From the NCBI GenBank assembly GCA_938073895.1, contig CALJFB010000010.1, positions 62,001 through 126,000 on the forward strand: a DNA stretch of 64,000 bases, written 5' to 3'. The translations under genes were made by a program, and so were the position numbers. Below the pieces are notes generated by a model. It was not told where the DNA came from. It was given only the letters and a program-made list of their open reading frames with translations, and searched no databases. Positions 19,532 to 30,488 of the stretch are shown piece by piece. The stretch's first letter is position 1. Every line of letters starts with the position of its first letter. Origin of the DNA: an uncultured Flavobacteriaceae bacterium (lineage in GTDB: Bacteria > Bacteroidota > Bacteroidia > Flavobacteriales > Flavobacteriaceae).

Positions 19532-20326
19532 TTATTTTTTAACAATAAAACTTCCTGTATTTACATCAAATTCTACAATATTTTTAGGAAAAAGCGTTGA
19601 GAAAACATCTTGTTTTATAAGATTACAAGGTGTGTTGTAAAACGAATTATTAGTAGTCATAACTAGCATTTTATCGCATAATTGAATGGTTAAATTAATT
19701 TCGTGCGAGGAGAATAAAATGGTTTTATTAGCTGTTTTAGCTATGTTTTGTAAAAGTTTTAATATGTATGCTTTATGATACATGTCTAAATGTGTGGTTG
19801 GCTCGTCTAAAATTATAAGTGGTGTGTCTTGAGCTAAAGCTCTTGCTATTAAGACTTTTTGTAATTGTCCATCGCTAAGTTCAAAGCATTTTTTTGTTGC
19901 TAAATCTATAGCTTGCGTTTGTTCTAATGCTTTATTTACAATAGAAATATCTTTATCTGTAAGCGTTCCAATCCAATTGGTATAAGGTTGTCTTCCAAGA
20001 GATACAAGTTCGAAAACCGTAAGATTTTTAGAAAGCGATTTATCTGTTAAAACTAAACTTAATCTTGTTGCTAATACTTGATTAGTATAAGATTCTAAAG
20101 GTTTACCATCTATAGAGATAGAACCTTTTAGTGGATTTTGTAATTGGGTTAATGTTCTAAGTAATGTAGATTTTCCAATTCCGTTTGCACCAACCAATCC
20201 AATTAATTCTCCAGGAAATAATTCGAAATTAATGTTTGAAGCAATAACGATTTCTTCCTTTTTAGATAAATATCCAATAGAAAGATTTTTGGTTTTTAAA
20301 ACGCTATATGTCTTATTTGTATTCAA
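19532..20326 (-). CDS. ABC transporter ATP-binding protein, BtuD/FecE-like
   Basis: Walker A GLVGANGIGKSTLL, LSDGQLQKVLIARALAQ, Walker B LIILDEPTTHLD. Confidence 0.9.
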   Translation of the reverse strand: MNTNKTYSVLKTKNLSIGYLSKKEEIVIASNINFELFPGELIGLVGANGIGKSTLLRTLTQLQNPLKGSISIDGKPLESYTNQVLATRLSLVLTDKSLSKNLTVFELVSLGRQPYTNWIGTLTDKDISIVNKALEQTQAIDLATKKCFELSDGQLQKVLIARALAQDTPLIILDEPTTHLDMYHKAYILKLLQNIAKTANKTILFSSHEINLTIQLCDKMLVMTTNNSFYNTPCNLIKQDVFSTLFPKNIVEFDVNTGSFIVKK

Positions 20327-20376: not shown

Positions 20377-21405
20377 TTAAAAGCTCATTTGTCTTTTTCT
20401 AACTAATAGCCATATTACAACTGGCGCACCAATTAATGATGTTATAGCATTAATAGGCAAGGAGTAATTACTTGTTGGTACTTGTGCTATGCTATCGCAA
20501 ATTAACATTAAAATTGCACCAAAAAGCATAACTGCAGGTAATAAAATACTATGGCTAGAGGTTTTAAATAGTTGTCTGGTTAAATGTGGAACTGCTAATC
20601 CAATAAAAGCAATTGGTCCTGCAAAAGCCGTAATACTTCCAGCTAATAAACTAGCAGCTATAATAATTACAAATCGGTTTTTTTCTAAATTTAAACCTAA
20701 ACTTTTGGCATATTGATCTCCTAAAAGTAAACTATTTAAGGCTTTTAATGCGGTAATACTTAAAGTTAAACCAATGGCATATATAATTGCAAATATTCTT
20801 ATTTTCTCCCAACTTAAATCGCCTAAGCTTCCAAAACCCCAAAATATATATTGTTGTAATTGATCTGCTGGACTAAAATAAGAAAGTACACTAACAATAG
20901 CAGAAGTTAAGCTACCAAACATAAGTCCAATAATTAGTAATGTCATTGTATCTTTTACTTTATTAGCAACTAATAAAACGGTTAATAACACAAGAAAACT
21001 ACCTAAAGACGATGCTATTACTAAACTCCAATTAGAGGCCAAAATAGTGGCTAAAAAACCACCAAATAAACTGCTTCCTAAAATTAAAATAGCAACACCT
21101 AAGCTTGCACCAGATGTAATTCCTAAAACATAAGGTCCGGCTAATGGGTTTTTAAAAAGTGTTTGCATTAGTAAACCAGAAATACCTAAGCCAGAACCTA
21201 CTAAAATTGCAGTTATTGCTTTTGGTAAGCGGTAATTTTGAATGATATACATCCAATTTTCGTTTTCAGAATTCCCTAATAAAGACGATGCTAATTCTGA
21301 AAAAGGAATACTTACAGAACCTAAACTTAAGTTTAAAACAAAGCATAATACCAATACTATAATAAGCATTAGAAAGGTGAATTTATATGTTTTGTTTGGA
21401 TTCAA
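20377..21405 (-). CDS. ABC transporter permease, BtuC/FecCD family
   Basis: YRLPKAITAILVGSGLGISGLLMQTLFKNPLAGPYVLGITSGASLGVA; GPIAFIGLAVPHLTRQL. Confidence 0.93.
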   Translation of the reverse strand: MNPNKTYKFTFLMLIIVLVLCFVLNLSLGSVSIPFSELASSLLGNSENENWMYIIQNYRLPKAITAILVGSGLGISGLLMQTLFKNPLAGPYVLGITSGASLGVAILILGSSLFGGFLATILASNWSLVIASSLGSFLVLLTVLLVANKVKDTMTLLIIGLMFGSLTSAIVSVLSYFSPADQLQQYIFWGFGSLGDLSWEKIRIFAIIYAIGLTLSITALKALNSLLLGDQYAKSLGLNLEKNRFVIIIAASLLAGSITAFAGPIAFIGLAVPHLTRQLFKTSSHSILLPAVMLFGAILMLICDSIAQVPTSNYSLPINAITSLIGAPVVIWLLVRKRQMSF

Positions 21406-21406
21406 T

Positions 21407-22552
21407 TTATTGTAAAGGTTTAAAAAATGTTGTGGTATAATCTTTTAATAGTTTTGGATGACAAATTTTAATTAAGTCTTTTAAAACCAAATCTGGTCTT
21501 GCAATTCCAAGTTCGTAATAGGTAACGCCACCAGTTTTTCCTGTGGTATTAGAAAACGAGAAGATGTTTTTGTTTTTAAAAGCATCAAATTTAGTGTAAT
21601 GTATATTTGCTTCTTTTAATGTATTATAGCTTGTGTAATAACTTGGACTAATCCATAAATCTGCTTGTTTACCTTTAATAAAAACGGTTTCAAAATTTAA
21701 CGATAAACTGCCTTGTTCTGCAGTTTGAGCCCATAAATAATTAACATTAGCATCTTTTAAAAGTTGAGCTTCTGTACTTGTGCCACTAGGTAAATACCAT
21801 ACATCTTTATACATGGCACCACTTATTACTGTTGGTTTGTTTTTTATAGTTTGCGCTAATTTCTTTACTTTTAAGTAATTAGTTTCAATAGTATTAAATA
21901 TAGAATCTGCTTGGTATTCTTTATTATATAATGCGCCAAAAAACTTAATCCATTCTGCTTTTGCTAAAGGACTTTTTTCAACCCAATCGCCATTATAAAT
22001 TACTGGAATATTTGCATTTTTTATAGTGTTTAGAGATTTACTAGCGCCATCAACCCCAAAAGCAACAATTGCATCTGGTTGTAATTCTAAAATACGTTCT
22101 GTATTTAAACTTTCGTTTTTTCCAATTTCTATAATTTTACCGCTATCTATTAAAGCTCTTGTTTTTTTTGAAGATACATATTTGGTACCAGGAAAAGCTA
22201 TTAGTGTGCTTTCTTGTTCTAATAATTCTAAGGCAGGAATATGTGTTGTACTTGTGGTAATTAGTTTTGAAATTGGTGTTGTTATTATACCATCAAACGC
22301 ATTTTTATTAAACGTTGTTTTAGCAGCGTTTTCTTTACTAATTAAAACGTAAGAGTACGTTTTATCTGCGTTTTTCCAAGGGTTTTTAATTTGAAGGACT
22401 TTGTAGTTTCCGTAATTTATTATGGTAAATCCATCGGCATATTTTAAAACTTTTCTTTTGGTTTTTGTTTGAGGAAAAACACCAGGTGTTTCTATGTTTT
22501 TTTTACAAGAAACAAAAAGAATACTAATAAATAATAAATATAAATACTTCAT
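21407..22552 (-). CDS. ABC transporter substrate-binding lipoprotein, BtuF-like
   Basis: Lipobox ILFVSC; ERILELQPDAIVAFGVDGASKSLNTIKNANIPVIYNGDWVEKSPLAKAEWIKFFGAL. Confidence 0.87.
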   Translation of the reverse strand: MKYLYLLFISILFVSCKKNIETPGVFPQTKTKRKVLKYADGFTIINYGNYKVLQIKNPWKNADKTYSYVLISKENAAKTTFNKNAFDGIITTPISKLITTSTTHIPALELLEQESTLIAFPGTKYVSSKKTRALIDSGKIIEIGKNESLNTERILELQPDAIVAFGVDGASKSLNTIKNANIPVIYNGDWVEKSPLAKAEWIKFFGALYNKEYQADSIFNTIETNYLKVKKLAQTIKNKPTVISGAMYKDVWYLPSGTSTEAQLLKDANVNYLWAQTAEQGSLSLNFETVFIKGKQADLWISPSYYTSYNTLKEANIHYTKFDAFKNKNIFSFSNTTGKTGGVTYYELGIARPDLVLKDLIKICHPKLLKDYTTTFFKPLQ

Positions 22553-22799
22553 TTTTAAGTATAAAAATTTACATCAAAAGTAAGCTTATAGCAAACAAGT
22601 TTCCAAACAATTAATTAGAATAATTTTTTTAATTTTATTTTTTTTGATTAAAATGAATTGATTGTAGTCTTGTAATTACTATTTAATTATAAGCTTTATA
22701 GAGGCTATAAATTTATTTTTTAAGATCTTGTTTTTAAAATATTTTGAATTATTTAATAATAAAATTATTTACGTCATTTAAATCCCTACATTTGTAGCG

Positions 22800-22985
22800 A
22801 ATTTGGTTTTTTATTCGCTTTGAATAAAAATTAAAAGGGAATTTGGTTAAAATCCAAAACTGTTCCCGCAACTGTAAGCTTAGTTCGTTTAGAACGCTTA
22901 TTATAACACATCATGTCACTGGAAAAACTTATTTCTGGGAAGACTTATAATAAGACGCAAGTCAGGAGACCTGCCTTTTTCAATC
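22800..22985 (+). promoter_or_regulatory. Cobalamin (B12) riboswitch
   Basis: AAAAGGGAATTTGGTTAAAATCC...TGTTCCCGCAACTGTAA ... GTCACTGG ... CTGGGAAG ... AGACGCAAGTCAGGAGACCTGCC; conserved B12-box. Candidate -7 TACATTTG at 22787-22794. Confidence 0.95.
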
Positions 22986-23023
22986 ATCAAAACCGACTTT
23001 CGGGTAAAGAGTCTAACTGATTT

Positions 23024-24841
23024 ATGAGAAAACATATTTACATGTTATTTTTTCTGTGTTGTCCGCTTTTGGCGTTGGCACAAATAGATTCTATCCAAAA
23101 ATTAGACGAAGTTGTTTTAAGCGATATTAAACTTAAAAATCTTAGAGTTAGCCATAAACTAACGGTTTTATCGGATTCTATATTAAATCAGCAACCCACA
23201 AATTCTACTAATTTATTTGCTTTTAATTCTAATATCTATTTTAAAGAAAATGGTTTTGGAATGGTATCGTCGCCATCTTTTAGAGGTACAAGTGCTTCGC
23301 AAACTGCGGTATTGTGGAATGGTATAAATATAAATTCGCAGCTAAACGGGCAAACAGATTTTGGTGCTTTGTTTTTAGCAGGTTTCGATCAAATTACTAT
23401 AAAAAGTGGTGGCGGAAGCGTACAACACGGCTCTGGTGCTATTGGAGGCTCAATTCATTTAAATAATAATTTAGATTTTTCTTCGTCATTTACAAATAAG
23501 ATTCAATTAAGTTATGGTAGTTTTAACACCAAACAAATCACTTATAAAGCAATAGCAAGTACTAAACGTTTGGCGTTAAATGTTGGTTTTAACAGATTGA
23601 GTTCTGAAAATAATTACGAGTTTATTGGAACGAATCAAATAAATACTAATGGTGCTTTTAATAATTCTACGTTTTTTGCAAACCTTGGCTATACATTAAG
23701 TAAAACAGATATTATTAAGTTTTACACCAATACTTTTGTTGGCGAACGCGAGTTGTCTGGAACCTTAGTTGCGCCATCTAAAAGCAAGTATAACGATGCT
23801 AGTTTTAGACATTTACTAGAATGGCAACATTTAGGAAATACATACACATCTGCTTTTAAATTTGCGTCTTTAAAAGAACAGTTTAAGTATTTTGAAAATA
23901 AGGATAACAACAATTTTTCCTTCGGAAATGTGCAGCAGTTTATAGCTAAGCACGAATTTGAATATAAATTACCAAAGCGTATAACCTTAAATTCGGTTAT
24001 AGAATACAATACGTTTAAAGGCGAAGGCAGCAGTTTTGGAGATCCAAAGCGTAATGCCTTTTCAGCAACGTTAATACTTCAGCAAAAAATAAATAAATTA
24101 ACTTATAATTTAAGTGCAAGACAAGATGTAACTACTGGATTTAATAGTCCTTTGGTGTTTTCTGCCGATGCTAATTATAAGTTTACTAAACATTACAATG
24201 TAACTTTAAACGCTTCTAAAAATTATAGCGTTCCAACCTTTAACGATTTATATTGGCGACCTGGCGGGAATTTAGATTTAGTACCAGAAACCTCTTATCA
24301 AGCAGATTTTGGTCAGGCTTTAGAATTTAAATCGGTTCAGTTTTTATTAAATGCTTATTATATTAGAATTAACGATATGATACAATGGACACCAGAAAAC
24401 GGATTTTGGTCGCCTAAAAACCTAAACCAAGTAGAAAGTATAGGTGCCGAGTTTGAAACGTCTTTTACCAAGCAATTAGGATATCATACTATTAAAACTG
24501 ATGTAAAATATAGTTTTACTAGCACAAAAAACTTAAAAAATAATACGCAATTAATTTATGTGCCAAAACATAAAGGAAACTTAAATATGGCTTATGGATT
24601 TAAAAACGCGACACTTTTTTATCAGCATTTATATAACGGGCAAGTTAATATTATTGGCGATGTTTTAAAAGCTTATAATGTTTCTAATGCTGGAATTGGT
24701 TACAACTTTAAACATTTTAAAAACTTAGATTATAGCTTTAATTTTAAAGTAAATAATCTTTTTAACGCCTATTACGAAAACGTAGCATTGCGTCCAATGC
24801 CAAATAGAAACTATAACTTACAATTAACCCTTAATTTTTAA
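23024..24841 (+). CDS. TonB-dependent outer-membrane receptor, BtuB-like
   Basis: 605 aa; signal peptide, plug (PSFRGTSASQTAVLWNGININSQLNGQTDFGALF), C-terminal NRNYNLQLTLNF; directly downstream of B12 riboswitch. Confidence 0.92.
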   Translation: MRKHIYMLFFLCCPLLALAQIDSIQKLDEVVLSDIKLKNLRVSHKLTVLSDSILNQQPTNSTNLFAFNSNIYFKENGFGMVSSPSFRGTSASQTAVLWNGININSQLNGQTDFGALFLAGFDQITIKSGGGSVQHGSGAIGGSIHLNNNLDFSSSFTNKIQLSYGSFNTKQITYKAIASTKRLALNVGFNRLSSENNYEFIGTNQINTNGAFNNSTFFANLGYTLSKTDIIKFYTNTFVGERELSGTLVAPSKSKYNDASFRHLLEWQHLGNTYTSAFKFASLKEQFKYFENKDNNNFSFGNVQQFIAKHEFEYKLPKRITLNSVIEYNTFKGEGSSFGDPKRNAFSATLILQQKINKLTYNLSARQDVTTGFNSPLVFSADANYKFTKHYNVTLNASKNYSVPTFNDLYWRPGGNLDLVPETSYQADFGQALEFKSVQFLLNAYYIRINDMIQWTPENGFWSPKNLNQVESIGAEFETSFTKQLGYHTIKTDVKYSFTSTKNLKNNTQLIYVPKHKGNLNMAYGFKNATLFYQHLYNGQVNIIGDVLKAYNVSNAGIGYNFKHFKNLDYSFNFKVNNLFNAYYENVALRPMPNRNYNLQLTLNF

Positions 24842-24844
24842 AAA

Positions 24845-25915
24845 ATGAAACTAAAAACATTAGCACTTATTACTTTAGTAAACCTTTTTGTATTTACATC
24901 TTGTACAGATGATAACGATACAACAGCTGTAGCGCCAAAAGGCGATTACCAAAACGGATTATTAATTTCTAACGAAGGAAATTTTGGTACTGGAGTAGGA
25001 ACAGTAACTTATGTTTCTGGAGATTTAGATACAGTAGAAAATAAAGTTTACCAAAATGTAAATGGAACAACTTTAGGAAACGCTTTACAAAGTATTGCTT
25101 TTAATGGAGATTTAGCTTATTTAATAGAAAATGGATCTAATACTATAGAAATTGTTAATAGATATACGTTTATTAGTGAAGGTTCTATAGATACTGGATT
25201 TTCTAACCCAAGATATATGGCTTTTTCAAATGGTAAAGGTTATGTAACAAATTGGGGCGATGGTAATGTTGCAACAGACGATTATATTGCTGTTGTAGAT
25301 TTATTAACAAATTCTGTAACATCTACTATTTCTGTAGCCGAAGGTCCAGAACAAATAGTATCTAAAAATAACAAATTATATGTTGCTTTAGAAGGCGCTT
25401 TTAATTCTAATAATAAAGTTTTAATAATTGATGCCTTAAATACAGCTTCTGTAACAGAAATTGAAGTTAATGATAATCCAGAACAATTGCAGTTTGATGC
25501 TAATGGAGATTTAATTGTTTTAAGTAAAGGTGACAATAGATTTTGGTTACCTAATGCTATAGAAACTAAAGGCGCTATTACTAAAATAAATACATCATCT
25601 TATGCAATAGAATCTGTGTTAGAGTTTGCAGATGGCTCTCATCCAAACTTCTTAGTTTTAGATAATAATATTATTTTTTATTATTTAGATGGTTCTGTTT
25701 ATAAAATGAATGCTACAGAAACTACTTTACCAACTACAGCTATAGTATCTGATGTTAGCTTTTATGGTATGACAGTAAAAAACGGAAATATTTTAGGTGT
25801 AGATGCTAAAGATTTTTCTTCTAATGGAGATTTACTTATTTATAACGCAACTTCTGGAGCTTTATTAGAAACTTTAGAAATGGAAATTATACCAAGTAAA
25901 GTTTACTTTAATTAA
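24845..25915 (+). CDS. Surface beta-propeller lipoprotein, YncE/DUF5074 type (BtuG-like)
   Basis: Lipobox LFVFTSC; repeated blades (GNVATDDYIAVVDLLTNSVTSTISVAEGPEQIVSKNNKLYVALEG); 3 nt after the btuB-like gene. Confidence 0.82.
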   Translation: MKLKTLALITLVNLFVFTSCTDDNDTTAVAPKGDYQNGLLISNEGNFGTGVGTVTYVSGDLDTVENKVYQNVNGTTLGNALQSIAFNGDLAYLIENGSNTIEIVNRYTFISEGSIDTGFSNPRYMAFSNGKGYVTNWGDGNVATDDYIAVVDLLTNSVTSTISVAEGPEQIVSKNNKLYVALEGAFNSNNKVLIIDALNTASVTEIEVNDNPEQLQFDANGDLIVLSKGDNRFWLPNAIETKGAITKINTSSYAIESVLEFADGSHPNFLVLDNNIIFYYLDGSVYKMNATETTLPTTAIVSDVSFYGMTVKNGNILGVDAKDFSSNGDLLIYNATSGALLETLEMEIIPSKVYFN

Positions 25916-25937: not shown

Positions 25938-25973
25938 TTAAAAAGCTACTTCTAAAGAAGTAGCTTTTTTTTT
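25938..25973 (+). terminator. Terminator after btuB-btuG-like operon
   Basis: aaaaagctacttctaaagaagtagctttttttt. Confidence 0.8.
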
Positions 25974-26074: not shown

Positions 26075-26776
26075 TTAATCTAAAACAATATCGCAAAACC
26101 AGAAGCCACTTTTGCCGTTTTCTGTATTTGGTGTATTGTATTCTCGGTATGTTTTTTCGCCTAAATTATAGGTTACAGGTGATGAGAAAATTGGACCATT
26201 ATAACAAAAAGTGTGGAATTCACCATTTTCGCCACAAACGTCTACTTCTTTGGGTAAATCTTCAATTAATTGATGTGTTAAGGTTTGTCCAACAAATTCT
26301 TCGTCAAAAAATTCTGCTTTAGCGCAAACTATAACTGCTTTAAAACCTAAATTTATAAATTTTGTAATTAGCTCTTTAGTATCCATTTTCCATAATGGAT
26401 AAATAGGCGTAAGGTTAAATGGTTTTAAGTTGTTATCTCTATAAGTTCTTAAATCTTCCAAGAAAATATCGCCAAAAACACAATGTGTATAATTTGCAGC
26501 TACTAAATAGTTAGTGGCTTTTGTTATAATTACCTCGTAATCTTCCATACTTGGCATTTCGGGTAATTCTATGGTTTTTAAAGGTAGGTTTAAAGCTTTG
26601 GTTTGCGCTTCTAAAACGTTTCGTCTTAAACCGTGCATACTAACTCTATTATAATGGCTGTTTATTGTAGTAACTAATAAATCAACATTATAAGCTTGAT
26701 CTTTCAATATTAAAAATAAAGCAAAACTTGAGTCTTTTCCAGAACTCCAATTAAAGTAGGTTTTGTGTGGTTGCAT
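26075..26776 (-). CDS. DUF71/COG2102 (Dph6-type) ATP pyrophosphatase; candidate B12-salvage subfamily
   Basis: YFNWSSGKDSSFAL PP-loop (SGGKDS variant), VSMHGLRRNVLEAQTKALNLPL, CGENGEFHTFCYNGPIF (ExGEfHT). Confidence 0.85.
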   Translation of the reverse strand: MQPHKTYFNWSSGKDSSFALFLILKDQAYNVDLLVTTINSHYNRVSMHGLRRNVLEAQTKALNLPLKTIELPEMPSMEDYEVIITKATNYLVAANYTHCVFGDIFLEDLRTYRDNNLKPFNLTPIYPLWKMDTKELITKFINLGFKAVIVCAKAEFFDEEFVGQTLTHQLIEDLPKEVDVCGENGEFHTFCYNGPIFSSPVTYNLGEKTYREYNTPNTENGKSGFWFCDIVLD

Positions 26777-28182
26777 TAATTTTTATGTAAGTTATCTATA
26801 AACATCTCTTGACTAAATTTATAAAAATTTGAAGAATGTAAAGGTTTAGAAATCTCTTTTTTTATTTGTGGTTTTGCTATTCTATTATTGGCATCTATTT
26901 GTGCTAAAGCTTCTGCTAACAAAGGTTCTGTTATTTGTCCCAATTGATTTAAGTTTAGTGCGTTTTCTGCTAAAGCAACATTAGGCACTAATCCTGTACT
27001 TGGCACTTCTATATCTAATTTATTAGTTGTTTTTGCTACCAAAGGTTGCATTGCGTATAAATGTAACGGATTTACATTATTTCTTGAAAAGTTAGGCGAA
27101 TCGTATAATGTAATTGAAGCTTGAGATTTTCCAACGGTTGTAGTTCCAATTTGAATAACATTAATATATGGTTTTAGGCTATTAATAATCATTTCGCTGG
27201 CAGAAGCTGTGTTATCTGTAGTTAAGACATAAATTTCGGTTAAATTAAGATGATTTATGGGTTGGTTGTTAACCGTTTGTTTAAAGTTGTAATTTTGGTT
27301 TGAAGCCAAAAAATTAGCGTTGTATTTTAGTTTAGAAAACACGTCTGTATTAAATTGTCCTGTAATCATGCTGGCTAAAAGTGTTGCTGTATTTACAGAG
27401 CCACCAGGATTGTAACGTAAATCTAGTACTAAATGATTTATGTTGTTGGCAGCAAAGTTTCCAAATGCGTTATTAAGTTGTTGATTAAACGCTGCATTAA
27501 ATCGGTTATACATTAAATAACCTACTTTTTCTGAGCCTACAGTAATAATTTTAGAGGTGTAAATTGGATTTTCCGTATAAGTTTGCTTGTTTAGGTTTAC
27601 GTTTGTTCCGTTAGTGTTAAATGTGTTTGTTGTAGTATTATATGTTGCTAATTGAATACTGTAACTGTTGTTAGATAACAAATTACGGTAATTAGAAACG
27701 GTTAAATCTTGATTGTTAACTTTTGTAAAAATAGCGCCACGAATTAAATTTTCTGAAGAAGCACTTGTATTTGGCAATACATATTTTACAAAACCATATA
27801 AATTAGTGCTTCCAGGAAATACGTAATCTAAACCGTAAACCATTCCATTAACTTGGTTTGTGCCTTCAAATTGTTGTTCTAAAGCTAAATAATCTTTGGA
27901 AAGCCAGCTAAATTTATCTGTTGTTGGTCTATCATATATTAAGTTTTCAAAGAAATTTTCTGGATTATTTACACTTAAATAGCTATTGTAATTTAGATTA
28001 AATGATTTATTTTCAACCAAATCAGGAACCAAATCATTATATATGTAATAACTTCTTAAGCCTTTGTAAATAAAATTATTTATGGCACTTGTAGAAACAG
28101 GTTTATCGTCTAAGTCGTTTGCACAACTTAAACATATTAAAAAACACAAACTGAAAATATATAGTGATTTAATAGGTTTCAT
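26776..28182 (-). CDS. S41 family C-terminal-processing peptidase lipoprotein
   Basis: Lipobox FLICLSC; LVLDLRYNPGGSVNTA, TDNTASASEMIINSLKP (Ser), GTTTVGKSQ (Lys). Confidence 0.9.
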   Translation of the reverse strand: MKPIKSLYIFSLCFLICLSCANDLDDKPVSTSAINNFIYKGLRSYYIYNDLVPDLVENKSFNLNYNSYLSVNNPENFFENLIYDRPTTDKFSWLSKDYLALEQQFEGTNQVNGMVYGLDYVFPGSTNLYGFVKYVLPNTSASSENLIRGAIFTKVNNQDLTVSNYRNLLSNNSYSIQLATYNTTTNTFNTNGTNVNLNKQTYTENPIYTSKIITVGSEKVGYLMYNRFNAAFNQQLNNAFGNFAANNINHLVLDLRYNPGGSVNTATLLASMITGQFNTDVFSKLKYNANFLASNQNYNFKQTVNNQPINHLNLTEIYVLTTDNTASASEMIINSLKPYINVIQIGTTTVGKSQASITLYDSPNFSRNNVNPLHLYAMQPLVAKTTNKLDIEVPSTGLVPNVALAENALNLNQLGQITEPLLAEALAQIDANNRIAKPQIKKEISKPLHSSNFYKFSQEMFIDNLHKN

Positions 28183-28304
28183 AAGATTTTAAATCATTTT
28201 TTATAAATTTACAACTATTTTTTCTCACAATCGATGTAACAATTTAGAAGTTGTATCGTCGTAATAACATAAGCGATTTAAACCGCCGCATAACCAAAAC
28301 CAAA

Positions 28305-28814
28305 ATGACCCAAACCGAGTTCTTACATCTGGTATTACCTTTTAAGGATAAGGTGTTTCGTTTAGCAAAACGATTACTTGTCTCTAAAGAAGAAGCAGAA
28401 GATGCTACTCAAGAAGTGTTATTAAAACTTTGGAATAATAAAAGTAAGATTGAAAGTTATAAAAATGTTGAAGCTTTTTCTATGACAATGACAAAAAATT
28501 TTTGTTATGATAAACTAAAATCTAAGCAAGCACAGAATTTAAAAATTGTACATAGCAATTATCAAGATCATAGTGTAGCACTTCAAAAGCAAGTAGAAAC
28601 AAACGATAGTTTAAACTTTGTAGAAAAATTAATAGAAGCATTGCCAGAACAACAAAAATTAGTTATTCAGTTAAGAGATATAGAACAGTATGAGTTTAAC
28701 GAGATAGAAAAAATGTTAGATATGAAACCTACTGCAATAAGAGGAGCCTTATCTAGAGCAAGAAAAACCATACGAGAACAATTAATAAAAACCCATAGTT
28801 ATGGACTTAAATAA
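28305..28814 (+). CDS. RNA polymerase ECF sigma factor
   Basis: ORF track start 28251 is TTG; ATG at 28305 (MTQTEFLHLVLPFKDKVFRLAKRLL); SKEEAEDATQEVLLKLW sigma-2, region 4 LRDIEQYEFNEIEKMLDMKPTAIRGALSRARKTIREQL. Confidence 0.9.
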   Translation: MTQTEFLHLVLPFKDKVFRLAKRLLVSKEEAEDATQEVLLKLWNNKSKIESYKNVEAFSMTMTKNFCYDKLKSKQAQNLKIVHSNYQDHSVALQKQVETNDSLNFVEKLIEALPEQQKLVIQLRDIEQYEFNEIEKMLDMKPTAIRGALSRARKTIREQLIKTHSYGLK

Positions 28815-29286
28815 TATAGAACAATTACTAGCAAAATACTTAGATGGTACTACATCGCTTTTAGAAGAGCAGCAGTTAAAACTTTTTTTTAATCAAGAAA
28901 CAATACCTGTGCATTTAGAAGTTTATAAGCCGCTATTTAATTATTTTACAGTAAGTAAAAAAGAAACCTTTACAGCAAAGCTTCCATTAGAAACTAAAAC
29001 AAACTTTACATATAAATGGTTAAGTATTGCGGCAGTTGTAGCTATTTCTTTTGGAATATACTTTAATTGGTCTGTAAATTCTCAAGATTTAGGAACGTAT
29101 AGCCAAGACGAAACGCAATTAGCTTATAAAGAGTTTATACAATCGTTACAAATGGTGTCTAAAAACTTTAATAAAGGCGCAACTTCTGTATCGTATTTAC
29201 AAGAACTAAATATAGCTAAAGAGCAAATAGCTTACTTAAACGATTTTCAAAACCCTATTGGGCGAACTTTAAAAATGAATAACTAA
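28801..29286 (+). CDS. Anti-sigma-factor-like membrane protein
   Basis: Overlaps ECF gene by 14 nt; N-terminal YLDGTTSLLEEQQLKLFF followed by single TM WLSIAAVVAISFGIYFNW. Confidence 0.75.
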   Translation: MDLNNIEQLLAKYLDGTTSLLEEQQLKLFFNQETIPVHLEVYKPLFNYFTVSKKETFTAKLPLETKTNFTYKWLSIAAVVAISFGIYFNWSVNSQDLGTYSQDETQLAYKEFIQSLQMVSKNFNKGATSVSYLQELNIAKEQIAYLNDFQNPIGRTLKMNN

Positions 29287-29392
29287 ACAAAAAAATAAAT
29301 TTGATAAAGAAATTTTAATCTTTCAAATCAAACAAACTAATAACAATAAAAAAATAAAAGAAATGAACACAATATTAAATATTACCTCGACA

Positions 29393-29956
29393 ATGAAAAA
29401 AGCAATTACACTTTTTACTTTAGCTTTATTACTAACTTCTTCGGCAATGGCTCAAGATATTTTTAGTAAATATTCAGACAACAGTAAAGTAACTTACATA
29501 TCTATTAAACCTAAAATGTTTAAACTTTTAGCTAAAATGGATATAGATACAGACGATGAAGAAGCACAACAATATATTGAAATGGTAAATAGTATTACCA
29601 GTTTTAAAACCATTATGACTAGCGATAAATCTATTGCCTTAGACTTTACAAAATATGTAAGCAAGTCGTCTAAAAAGTTAGAAGAATTAATGAAAGTTAA
29701 AGACAATGGCGTTGTAATGACATTTTACATTAAAGAAGGAAAAGACGAAGATCACGTAAGCGAATTGTTAATGTTTGTAGATGGATTAACAGATATTACA
29801 AAAGAGGCAAACGTAAATCTTAACGGAAAAAAGAGAACTTTAGAATCTATAGTTATGTCTTTAACTGGAGATATAAATTTAAACCAAATCTCTAAATTAA
29901 CTAGTAAAATGAATTTACCTGGTGGAGATGCTTTAGATAAGAAAAACAAAAAGTAA
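29393..29956 (+). CDS. DUF4252-like exported protein
   Basis: Signal peptide MKKAITLFTLALLLTSSAMAQ (start 29393 rather than 29363); MVNSITSFKTIMTSDK... Confidence 0.8.
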   Translation: MKKAITLFTLALLLTSSAMAQDIFSKYSDNSKVTYISIKPKMFKLLAKMDIDTDDEEAQQYIEMVNSITSFKTIMTSDKSIALDFTKYVSKSSKKLEELMKVKDNGVVMTFYIKEGKDEDHVSELLMFVDGLTDITKEANVNLNGKKRTLESIVMSLTGDINLNQISKLTSKMNLPGGDALDKKNKK

Positions 29957-29957
29957 G

Positions 29958-30488
29958 ATGAAAAACTTACTATACATTTGCTTATTATGTTTAACAGTAA
30001 TTGCTTGTAAAGACGAAGATTCTATACAAACCTTCTTTGTAGAACACCAAGAACAGCCAAGTTATTCTTTAGTCGATATTTCTAAAACATTAATAGATTT
30101 CTCTACTGCAGATTTAACAGAAGATGAGCGTAATGCTTATAATTCTTTAGACAAATTACACGTCTTAATGTATAAAGCTACAGATAGCACTCAAGACAGT
30201 TATAATAAAGAGTTAAAACAGATTCAAAAAGTATTTAAAAATCCAGATTACTCAGAATTAATGGCGTTTAGTTCGGCTGGAATGAAATTTAAAATTAATT
30301 CTATTGGAGAAGAAAATATAGTAGACGAAGTTCTAGTTCTAGCAAGTGCAAATTCCATGGGTTTTGCAGCAATTAGAGTTTTAGGAGAAGATATGAGTCC
30401 AGAAAAAATTGCAGCTTTAATTTATAAAATGAAAGATGCTAATTTAGATAATAACAAATTAAAAGGCATTATAGACTTTCTTAAATAA
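29958..30488 (+). CDS. DUF4252-like lipoprotein
   Basis: Lipobox LCLTVIAC; 1 nt after preceding gene. Confidence 0.7.
   Translation: MKNLLYICLLCLTVIACKDEDSIQTFFVEHQEQPSYSLVDISKTLIDFSTADLTEDERNAYNSLDKLHVLMYKATDSTQDSYNKELKQIQKVFKNPDYSELMAFSSAGMKFKINSIGEENIVDEVLVLASANSMGFAAIRVLGEDMSPEKIAALIYKMKDANLDNNKLKGIIDFLK

What the first reader, a model, noticed from the sequence alone, without database searches (positions are those of the whole stretch)
26075..26776. Bacterial Dph6-like (DUF71/COG2102) protein as a candidate B12-salvage enzyme
Bacteria lack diphthamide, so a Dph6-type ATP-pyrophosphatase must do something else. Published comparative genomics of DUF71/COG2102 predicted a B12-salvage subfamily near cobalamin transport genes. 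Here it lies 160 bp from the riboswitch-controlled receptor/propeller operon and is complete (SSGKDSS PP-loop, CGENGEFHT). Its natural reaction is, to my knowledge, not firmly established.
Basis: partly seen in the sequence, partly recalled or inferred. Interest (0 to 1): 0.62.

Follow-up and report, generated by a model that had tools for sequence, protein, structure and literature searches.

The report
B12-linked Dph6-like enzyme, reaction unknown
This bacterial gene is an intact relative of the archaeal/eukaryotic enzyme that finishes diphthamide; in its phylum such genes are repeatedly wired to vitamin B12 uptake, but this organism lacks the genes that the published 'B12 remodelling' role would need, so the enzyme probably does something else to imported B12.

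Summary
Window 26075-26776, minus strand, encodes an intact 233-aa DUF71/COG2102 protein with SSGKDS and CGENGEFHT. It is not Dph6: it scores far below the Dph6 model, and Glu188 is His. It lies 159 bp from the riboswitch-btuB-btuG operon, but convergent, behind a terminator-like hairpin and coupled to an S41-peptidase gene, so it is not riboswitch-controlled in cis. The B12 association is nevertheless real. In 19 sampled Bacteroidota genomes and 12 of 14 chosen named loci a cobalamin riboswitch lies upstream, same strand, of DUF71; the tree requires at least five changes of that state. All 49 DUF71-bearing Flavobacteriaceae carry a B12 riboswitch and an adenosyltransferase gene. What fails is the published specific prediction (CbiZ-like pseudo-B12 cleavage and rebuilding): this genome has no detected CbiB, CobS or CobU, and 37 of 49 DUF71 genomes lack all three. 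ENGEFH also marks unlinked bacterial homologues, so it is not diagnostic. Best guess: an adenylating, amide-forming enzyme acting on an imported corrinoid. That reaction is inferred; no experiment was found. Known predicted family, with a sharper constraint on its function.

The parts
26075..26776 (-). DUF71/COG2102 (bacterial Dph6-like) ATP-pyrophosphatase, 233 aa, intact; PP-loop S11-S-G-K-D15, H48, D103, W129, D179-V-C181-G-E-N-G-E-F-H188
26776..28182 (-). S41 (C-terminal-processing type) peptidase gene, GFO_1087 family; its stop overlaps the DUF71 ATG by 1 nt (TAATG), so co-transcription is likely
   Evidence: the pair is conserved in 27 loci with gaps of -14 to +60 nt
25940..25969 (+). 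intrinsic-terminator-like hairpin between the btuB-btuG operon and the convergent DUF71 gene
   Evidence: consensus match only
22787..22992 (+). cobalamin riboswitch, the only one found in this genome
23024..24841 (+). btuB-type TonB-dependent receptor
24845..25915 (+). BtuG-like surface beta-propeller lipoprotein (DUF5074)
   Evidence: best solved relatives 8p97, 3dsm
21407..22552 (-). BtuF-like periplasmic binding protein (divergent from the riboswitch operon)
20377..21405 (-). BtuC-type permease (FecCD)
19532..20326 (-). BtuD-type ATPase

Best explanation
The gene encodes a two-domain N-type ATP-pyrophosphatase of the bacterial DUF71 clade whose job is tied to use of imported corrinoids. 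SHOWN by sequence and comparative genomics: family, fold, intact ATP site, not Dph6, recurrent riboswitch/B12-transport linkage in its clade, and no detected CbiB, CobS or CobU gene, which remodelling would need, in this genome. INFERRED: the enzyme activates a carboxylate with ATP (acyl-AMP plus PPi, as Dph6 does) and forms an amide, most plausibly on a corrinoid side chain (for example re-amidating B12 monocarboxylic acids). That would make a damaged or incomplete corrinoid usable by the methylmalonyl-CoA-type mutases present here, without dismantling or rebuilding the nucleotide loop. I put the B12-linked role at about 0.75 and the specific amide-forming corrinoid chemistry at about 0.25-0.3; the score below is for the statement as a whole with the chemistry taken broadly (ATP-dependent action on an imported corrinoid).
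For: Riboswitch upstream, same strand, all intervening genes co-oriented, up to DUF71: 19 sampled genomes, including one with DUF71 as the first gene 97 bp after the riboswitch followed by btuFCD (L148), and 12 of 14 chosen named loci (e.g. Lutibacter agarilyticus L223 riboswitch-btuB-btuG-DUF71; Niastella L239; Mucilaginibacter L250/L252). At least 5 changes of the label on supported branches, 9 in all. 49 of 49 DUF71+ Flavobacteriaceae have a B12 riboswitch (56/72 without DUF71; Fisher p 1.7e-4) and a PduO adenosyltransferase. The own genome has methylmalonyl-CoA-mutase-type genes and PduO. ATP-site residues are conserved, and the model matches the two-domain Dph6 structures, whose chemistry is carboxylate to carboxamide (PMC3541065). 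The gene is under purifying selection: window pairs dN/dS about 0.17-0.37.
Against: No biochemical or genetic test was found in the library searched. H188 replaces the Glu predicted to be catalytic in Dph6, so the reaction may differ. More than half of the sampled copies are not near any B12 gene (70 of 118; e.g. next to aroQ). The window copy is S41-coupled and not riboswitch-controlled in cis. Window dN/dS is somewhat higher than for other pairs, and dS is near saturation.
Confidence: 0.35

Rival explanations
1. DUF71-B12 does what bacterial CbiZ does (published 2012 proposal): it cleaves adenosyl-pseudo-B12 to adenosylcobyric acid, which CbiB and the CobU/S/T/C enzymes rebuild into cobalamin (cobamide remodelling).
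For: PMC3541065 reports DUF71-B12 clustering with cbiB and anticorrelation with CbiZ in bacteria. No CbiZ in 121 Flavobacteriaceae. DUF71+ genomes are enriched for CobS (12/49 vs 3/72, p 0.0014). In several lineages DUF71 sits inside cobU-DUF71-cobT-cobS-cobC operons (L131, L132, L150, L164; L237, L239), and one Mucilaginibacter operon adds bluB (L259).
Against: The own genome has no detected CbiB, CobS or CobU; 37 of 49 DUF71+ genomes lack all three, including complete single-contig ones. Making cobyric acid there would destroy the vitamin. 44 of 49 DUF71+ genomes lack CbiB. DUF71 and CbiB are not significantly associated (p 0.12).
Confidence: 0.12
2. The B12 link of the window gene is positional hitchhiking: DUF71 belongs to the S41-peptidase operon and has a general role (tRNA, metabolite repair or other) unrelated to B12.
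For: The S41-DUF71 pair is tight and conserved in 27 loci. The pair persists without B12 genes in G036 (L080). All S41-linked copies form one clade, so adjacency to btuB counts once. Related copies sit next to aroQ or other genes. The Acinetobacter homologue is next to queE-queC.
Against: Independent riboswitch operons with DUF71 occur in many other lineages of the same clade. DUF71 was never found in a sampled Flavobacteriaceae genome lacking a B12 riboswitch or PduO.
Confidence: 0.25
3. It is a handling or trafficking protein rather than an amide ligase: the bacterial-specific D103/D179/C181/H188 set binds the corrinoid cobalt or another metal, with a small Cys-rich CWC/DUF5522 partner in some operons.
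For: D103, D179 and H188 are invariant and C181 97% conserved in bacterial members but differ in Dph6 (Ala, His, Glu, Ala). CWC or DUF5522 proteins lie close to DUF71 in 14 loci from both deep clades.
Against: The PP-loop and H48 are strictly retained, arguing for ATP chemistry. The own genome and nearly all Flavobacteriaceae lack a CWC protein. C181 and H188 are also conserved in the Acinetobacter-type clade.
Confidence: 0.1
4. It is a diphthine-ammonia ligase (Dph6) acting on EF-G or another protein.
For: Homology and fold; automatic annotation names bacterial members 'diphthine--ammonia ligase'.
Against: 75 bits against a 197-bit cut-off for TIGR03679; E188 replaced by H. Bacteria lack diphthamide (PMC3541065).
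Confidence: 0.02

Closest known systems
DUF71-B12 subgroup of COG2102 (de Crecy-Lagard et al. 2012, PMC3541065)
   Same: ENGEF/YH motif, non-Dph6, next to btu genes, bacterial clade
   Different: Genome lacks detected CbiB, CobS and CobU, which the proposed remodelling function would need; the gene is convergent to, not in, the B12 operon and is S41-coupled
Archaeal/eukaryotic Dph6, diphthine-ammonia ligase (PF0828, PH1257, yeast YLR143w)
   Same: Two-domain fold (TM 0.67-0.78 to PF0828/PH1257), PP-loop, H48, W129, GE-GE loop
   Different: H188 for E188, D103 for Ala, C181 for Ala, D179 for His; below the model cut-off
CobU-DUF71-CobT-CobS-CobC operon copies in Bacteroidota (clade A, and Niastella/Pseudoflavitalea type)
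   Same: Homologous protein, B12 locus; four Flavobacteriaceae genomes carry both types in one locus
   Different: Clade A is a deeply separate clade found only with CobS among the Flavobacteriaceae sampled; the window genome has no detected nucleotide-loop genes
CbiZ and CbiR cobamide-remodelling enzymes
   Same: Predicted functional analogue near corrinoid genes
   Different: Different families; hydrolases of the cobamide nucleotide loop (PMC7733943), whereas this is a PP-loop ATP-pyrophosphatase; downstream pathway not found here

Membership tests
COG2102 / PF01902 | profile match over curated cut-off and intact PP-loop | tested here: met
   109.5 vs 23.2 bits; S11, G13, K14, D15, H48 invariant
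Dph6 | EGGE/D-x-E188 motif | tested here: not met
   GENGEFH188
Dph6 | TIGR03679 equivalog cut-off 197.3 bits | tested here: not met
   75.1 bits
DUF71-B12 subgroup | ENGEF/YH motif | tested here: met
   CGENGEFHT; but nearly all bacterial members sampled have it, B12-linked or not, so it separates bacterial DUF71 from Dph6 only
DUF71-B12 subgroup | adjacent to B12 transport genes | tested here: met
   btuB-btuG 159 bp away, btuFCD beyond; convergent, not co-operonic
DUF71-B12 subgroup | phylogenetic placement with B12-linked members | tested here: met
   Clade of 95 rows (100/99) with recurrent riboswitch operons; the exact sister group is unresolved in the careful tree (supported only in the quick tree)
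DUF71-B12 subgroup | genome context for CbiZ-like remodelling (CbiB present, CbiZ absent) | tested here: not met
   CbiZ absent, but CbiB, CobS and CobU also absent
DUF71-B12 subgroup | enzymatic action on a corrinoid | not testable with these tools
   No experiment found in the literature searched
Cobalamin-riboswitch regulon | riboswitch upstream on the same strand | tested here: not met
   Riboswitch is on + and the gene on -, with a terminator-like hairpin between; met in 19 sampled and 12 named relatives' loci

The most novel reading that the evidence does not exclude
Bacterial DUF71 is an ATP-dependent corrinoid side-chain amide ligase (a B12 repair enzyme) used by cobamide importers that can neither make nor remodel B12: a vitamin-repair activity with no enzyme assigned as far as I know, and a direct chemical descendant of Dph6.
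Probability: 0.2. Interest if true: 0.7.

Novelty: new member of a known kind. Interest (0 to 1): 0.38.

Why it matters
The B12 role of bacterial DUF71 has, as far as the library searched shows, stayed a prediction since 2012. The data here strengthen the regulatory link (riboswitch operons in many Bacteroidota lineages) and narrow the function: in most Flavobacteriaceae that carry it, including this one, the enzyme must work without nucleotide-loop reassembly. That shifts attention from pseudo-B12 cleavage towards chemistry on intact or damaged imported corrinoids, which can be tested with one purified protein and one knockout.

Tried and rejected
The ENGEFH motif as a B12 marker: rejected, since copies with no B12 genes nearby share it. 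DUF71 as a replacement adenosyltransferase: rejected, since PduO is present in all 49 DUF71+ genomes and in the own genome. CWC as an obligatory partner: rejected, since it is absent from own and 120 of 121 Flavobacteriaceae. A resolved sister relation between the window clade and the riboswitch-operon copies: seen in the quick tree but open in the careful tree, so not claimed. The own-genome CobU hit (21.8 bits, below cut-off, in a 452-aa ORF) was treated as an unrelated weak match. No riboswitch found in L267 even at a permissive threshold.

Full report
WHAT IS THERE. The ORF at 26075-26776 is real, intact and on the minus strand. It is a PF01902 protein (109.5 bits) whose nearest solved relatives are the archaeal Dph6 proteins PF0828 and PH1257. 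An AlphaFold2 model from 88 homologues has mean pLDDT 95.9. It matches those two-domain structures along its length (TM 0.67-0.78), and the other PP-loop enzymes only at TM about 0.4. Positions said in PMC3541065 to surround the ATP phosphates are kept (S11, G13, K14, D15, H48, T189 here), while Dph6's E188 is H188. D103, D179 and C181 are bacterial-specific. The NCBI Dph6 model is missed by a wide margin (75 vs 197 bits).

LOCAL SETTING. The + strand holds the genome's only detected cobalamin riboswitch (22787-22992), then btuB (23024-24841) and a BtuG-like propeller (24845-25915; best PDB relatives 8p97 and 3dsm), ending in a terminator-like hairpin at 25940-25969. DUF71 is convergent to it. 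It starts inside the stop codon of an S41 peptidase gene (TAATG), a pairing kept in 27 loci with gaps of -14 to +60 nt. The window's copy is therefore probably expressed with the peptidase and not controlled by the riboswitch in cis. btuFCD lie on the minus strand on the other side of the riboswitch.

IS THE B12 LINK MORE THAN CHANCE? Among 121 Flavobacteriaceae genomes (one per genus), 49 have DUF71. Neighbourhoods fall into three main types: CobU-T-S-C / DUF71 / BtuFCD; btuB / DUF71-S41 (the window type); and lpd / DUF71-aroQ with no B12 genes, plus scattered others. The first is a deep separate clade; the window type is one clade (99/97) nested among unlinked copies. So adjacency in the window type is a single inherited event and weak evidence by itself. 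I therefore sampled the phylum (297 genomes, 86 with DUF71), fetched neighbourhoods and mapped riboswitches. In 19 loci a cobalamin riboswitch lies upstream on the same strand with every intervening gene co-oriented. Of 14 named loci chosen because a BtuB homologue preceded DUF71, 12 have the riboswitch. On a tree of 110 proteins this state needs 9 changes, at least 5 of them forced by supported branches. In the 121 Flavobacteriaceae, DUF71 never occurs without a B12 riboswitch (49/49 vs 56/72) or a PduO adenosyltransferase (49/49 vs 61/72), though small genomes confound this. I conclude that bacterial DUF71 in this clade is B12-linked with probability about 0.75.

WHAT IT CANNOT BE DOING HERE. 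The published idea is that DUF71-B12 replaces bacterial CbiZ, cleaving pseudo-B12 to cobyric acid for rebuilding through CbiB (PMC3541065). In the window's genome (92.7% complete) CbiB, CobS and CobU are not found, while methylmalonyl-CoA-mutase-type proteins and PduO are; MetH's B12 domain was also not found. CobT was not tested. The same holds for 37 of 49 DUF71+ genomes, several of them complete single contigs. Such a cell could not use the proposed product. The gene is nonetheless under purifying selection (window pairs dN/dS about 0.17-0.37), with all invariant residues intact. Remodelling remains possible in lineages where DUF71 sits inside cobU-DUF71-cobT-cobS-cobC operons (with bluB in one Mucilaginibacter operon).

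MECHANISM. Shown: fold (model), ATP site, not Dph6, B12-linked regulation in relatives, no nucleotide-loop pathway detected here. Inferred: like Dph6, it adenylates a carboxylate and forms an amide. An importer-only cell could use this to restore amides on damaged or incomplete corrinoids. I know of no enzyme assigned to that repair (own knowledge), and one literature search on corrinoid deamidation found nothing on point. Rivals are CbiZ-like cleavage (0.12 here), hitchhiking with an unrelated role (0.25), corrinoid or metal handling by the D103/D179/C181/H188 set (0.1) and Dph6 (0.02).

NOVELTY. What is added is the regulatory evidence in Bacteroidota, the demonstration that the ENGEFH motif is not diagnostic of B12 linkage, and the absence of the pathway the leading hypothesis needs.

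Noticed in passing
L041, L042, L043, L045 (G085, G060, G062, G052): Four Flavobacteriaceae genomes carry two deeply diverged DUF71 paralogues about 6 kb apart in one B12 locus: one between cobC and btuF, one between btuB and the S41 peptidase.
   Followed up: partly
L207:5779-5991, L244:2693-2914, L251:4963-5181, L266:5780-5992, L122:6645-6998: Small Cys-rich proteins (Cys_rich_CWC PF14375, or DUF5522) sit next to DUF71, mostly in B12 operons, in both deep clades; a possible partner or metal/sulfur carrier of unknown function.
   Followed up: partly
L207:4187-4792, L250:4597-5166: DUF6580 (PF20221, about 190-200 aa) lies within cobalamin-riboswitch btuB operons; possibly an inner-membrane corrinoid transport component. 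No paper with DUF6580 and B12 was found.
   Followed up: no
L036, L047-L049, L052, L053, L055, L059, L065-L067: A large group of DUF71 genes sits between lpd and aroQ (3-dehydroquinate dehydratase) without B12 genes nearby; the reason for this conserved pairing is unknown.
   Followed up: partly
L126 (Acinetobacter baumannii CP040041): The separate Acinetobacter/Peribacillus DUF71 type (GEGGEFH) lies beside queE and queC (queuosine precursor genes) in Acinetobacter.
   Followed up: no
window 24845-25915: BtuG-like lipoprotein downstream of btuB in Flavobacteriaceae, sequence-related to solved Bacteroides surface propellers (8p97, 3dsm).
   Followed up: partly
window 26776-30488: Conserved flavobacterial block S41 peptidase / ECF sigma factor / 28801-29286 / GFO_1090 / DUF4252 lipoprotein, with NCBI family models but no known function.
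   Followed up: no
G014:C1:3594074-3594235 and G001:C16:1083641-1084255: Apparent DUF71 remnants with in-frame stops (2 TAA and 1 TAA), i.e. recent loss or decay in some lineages.
   Followed up: no
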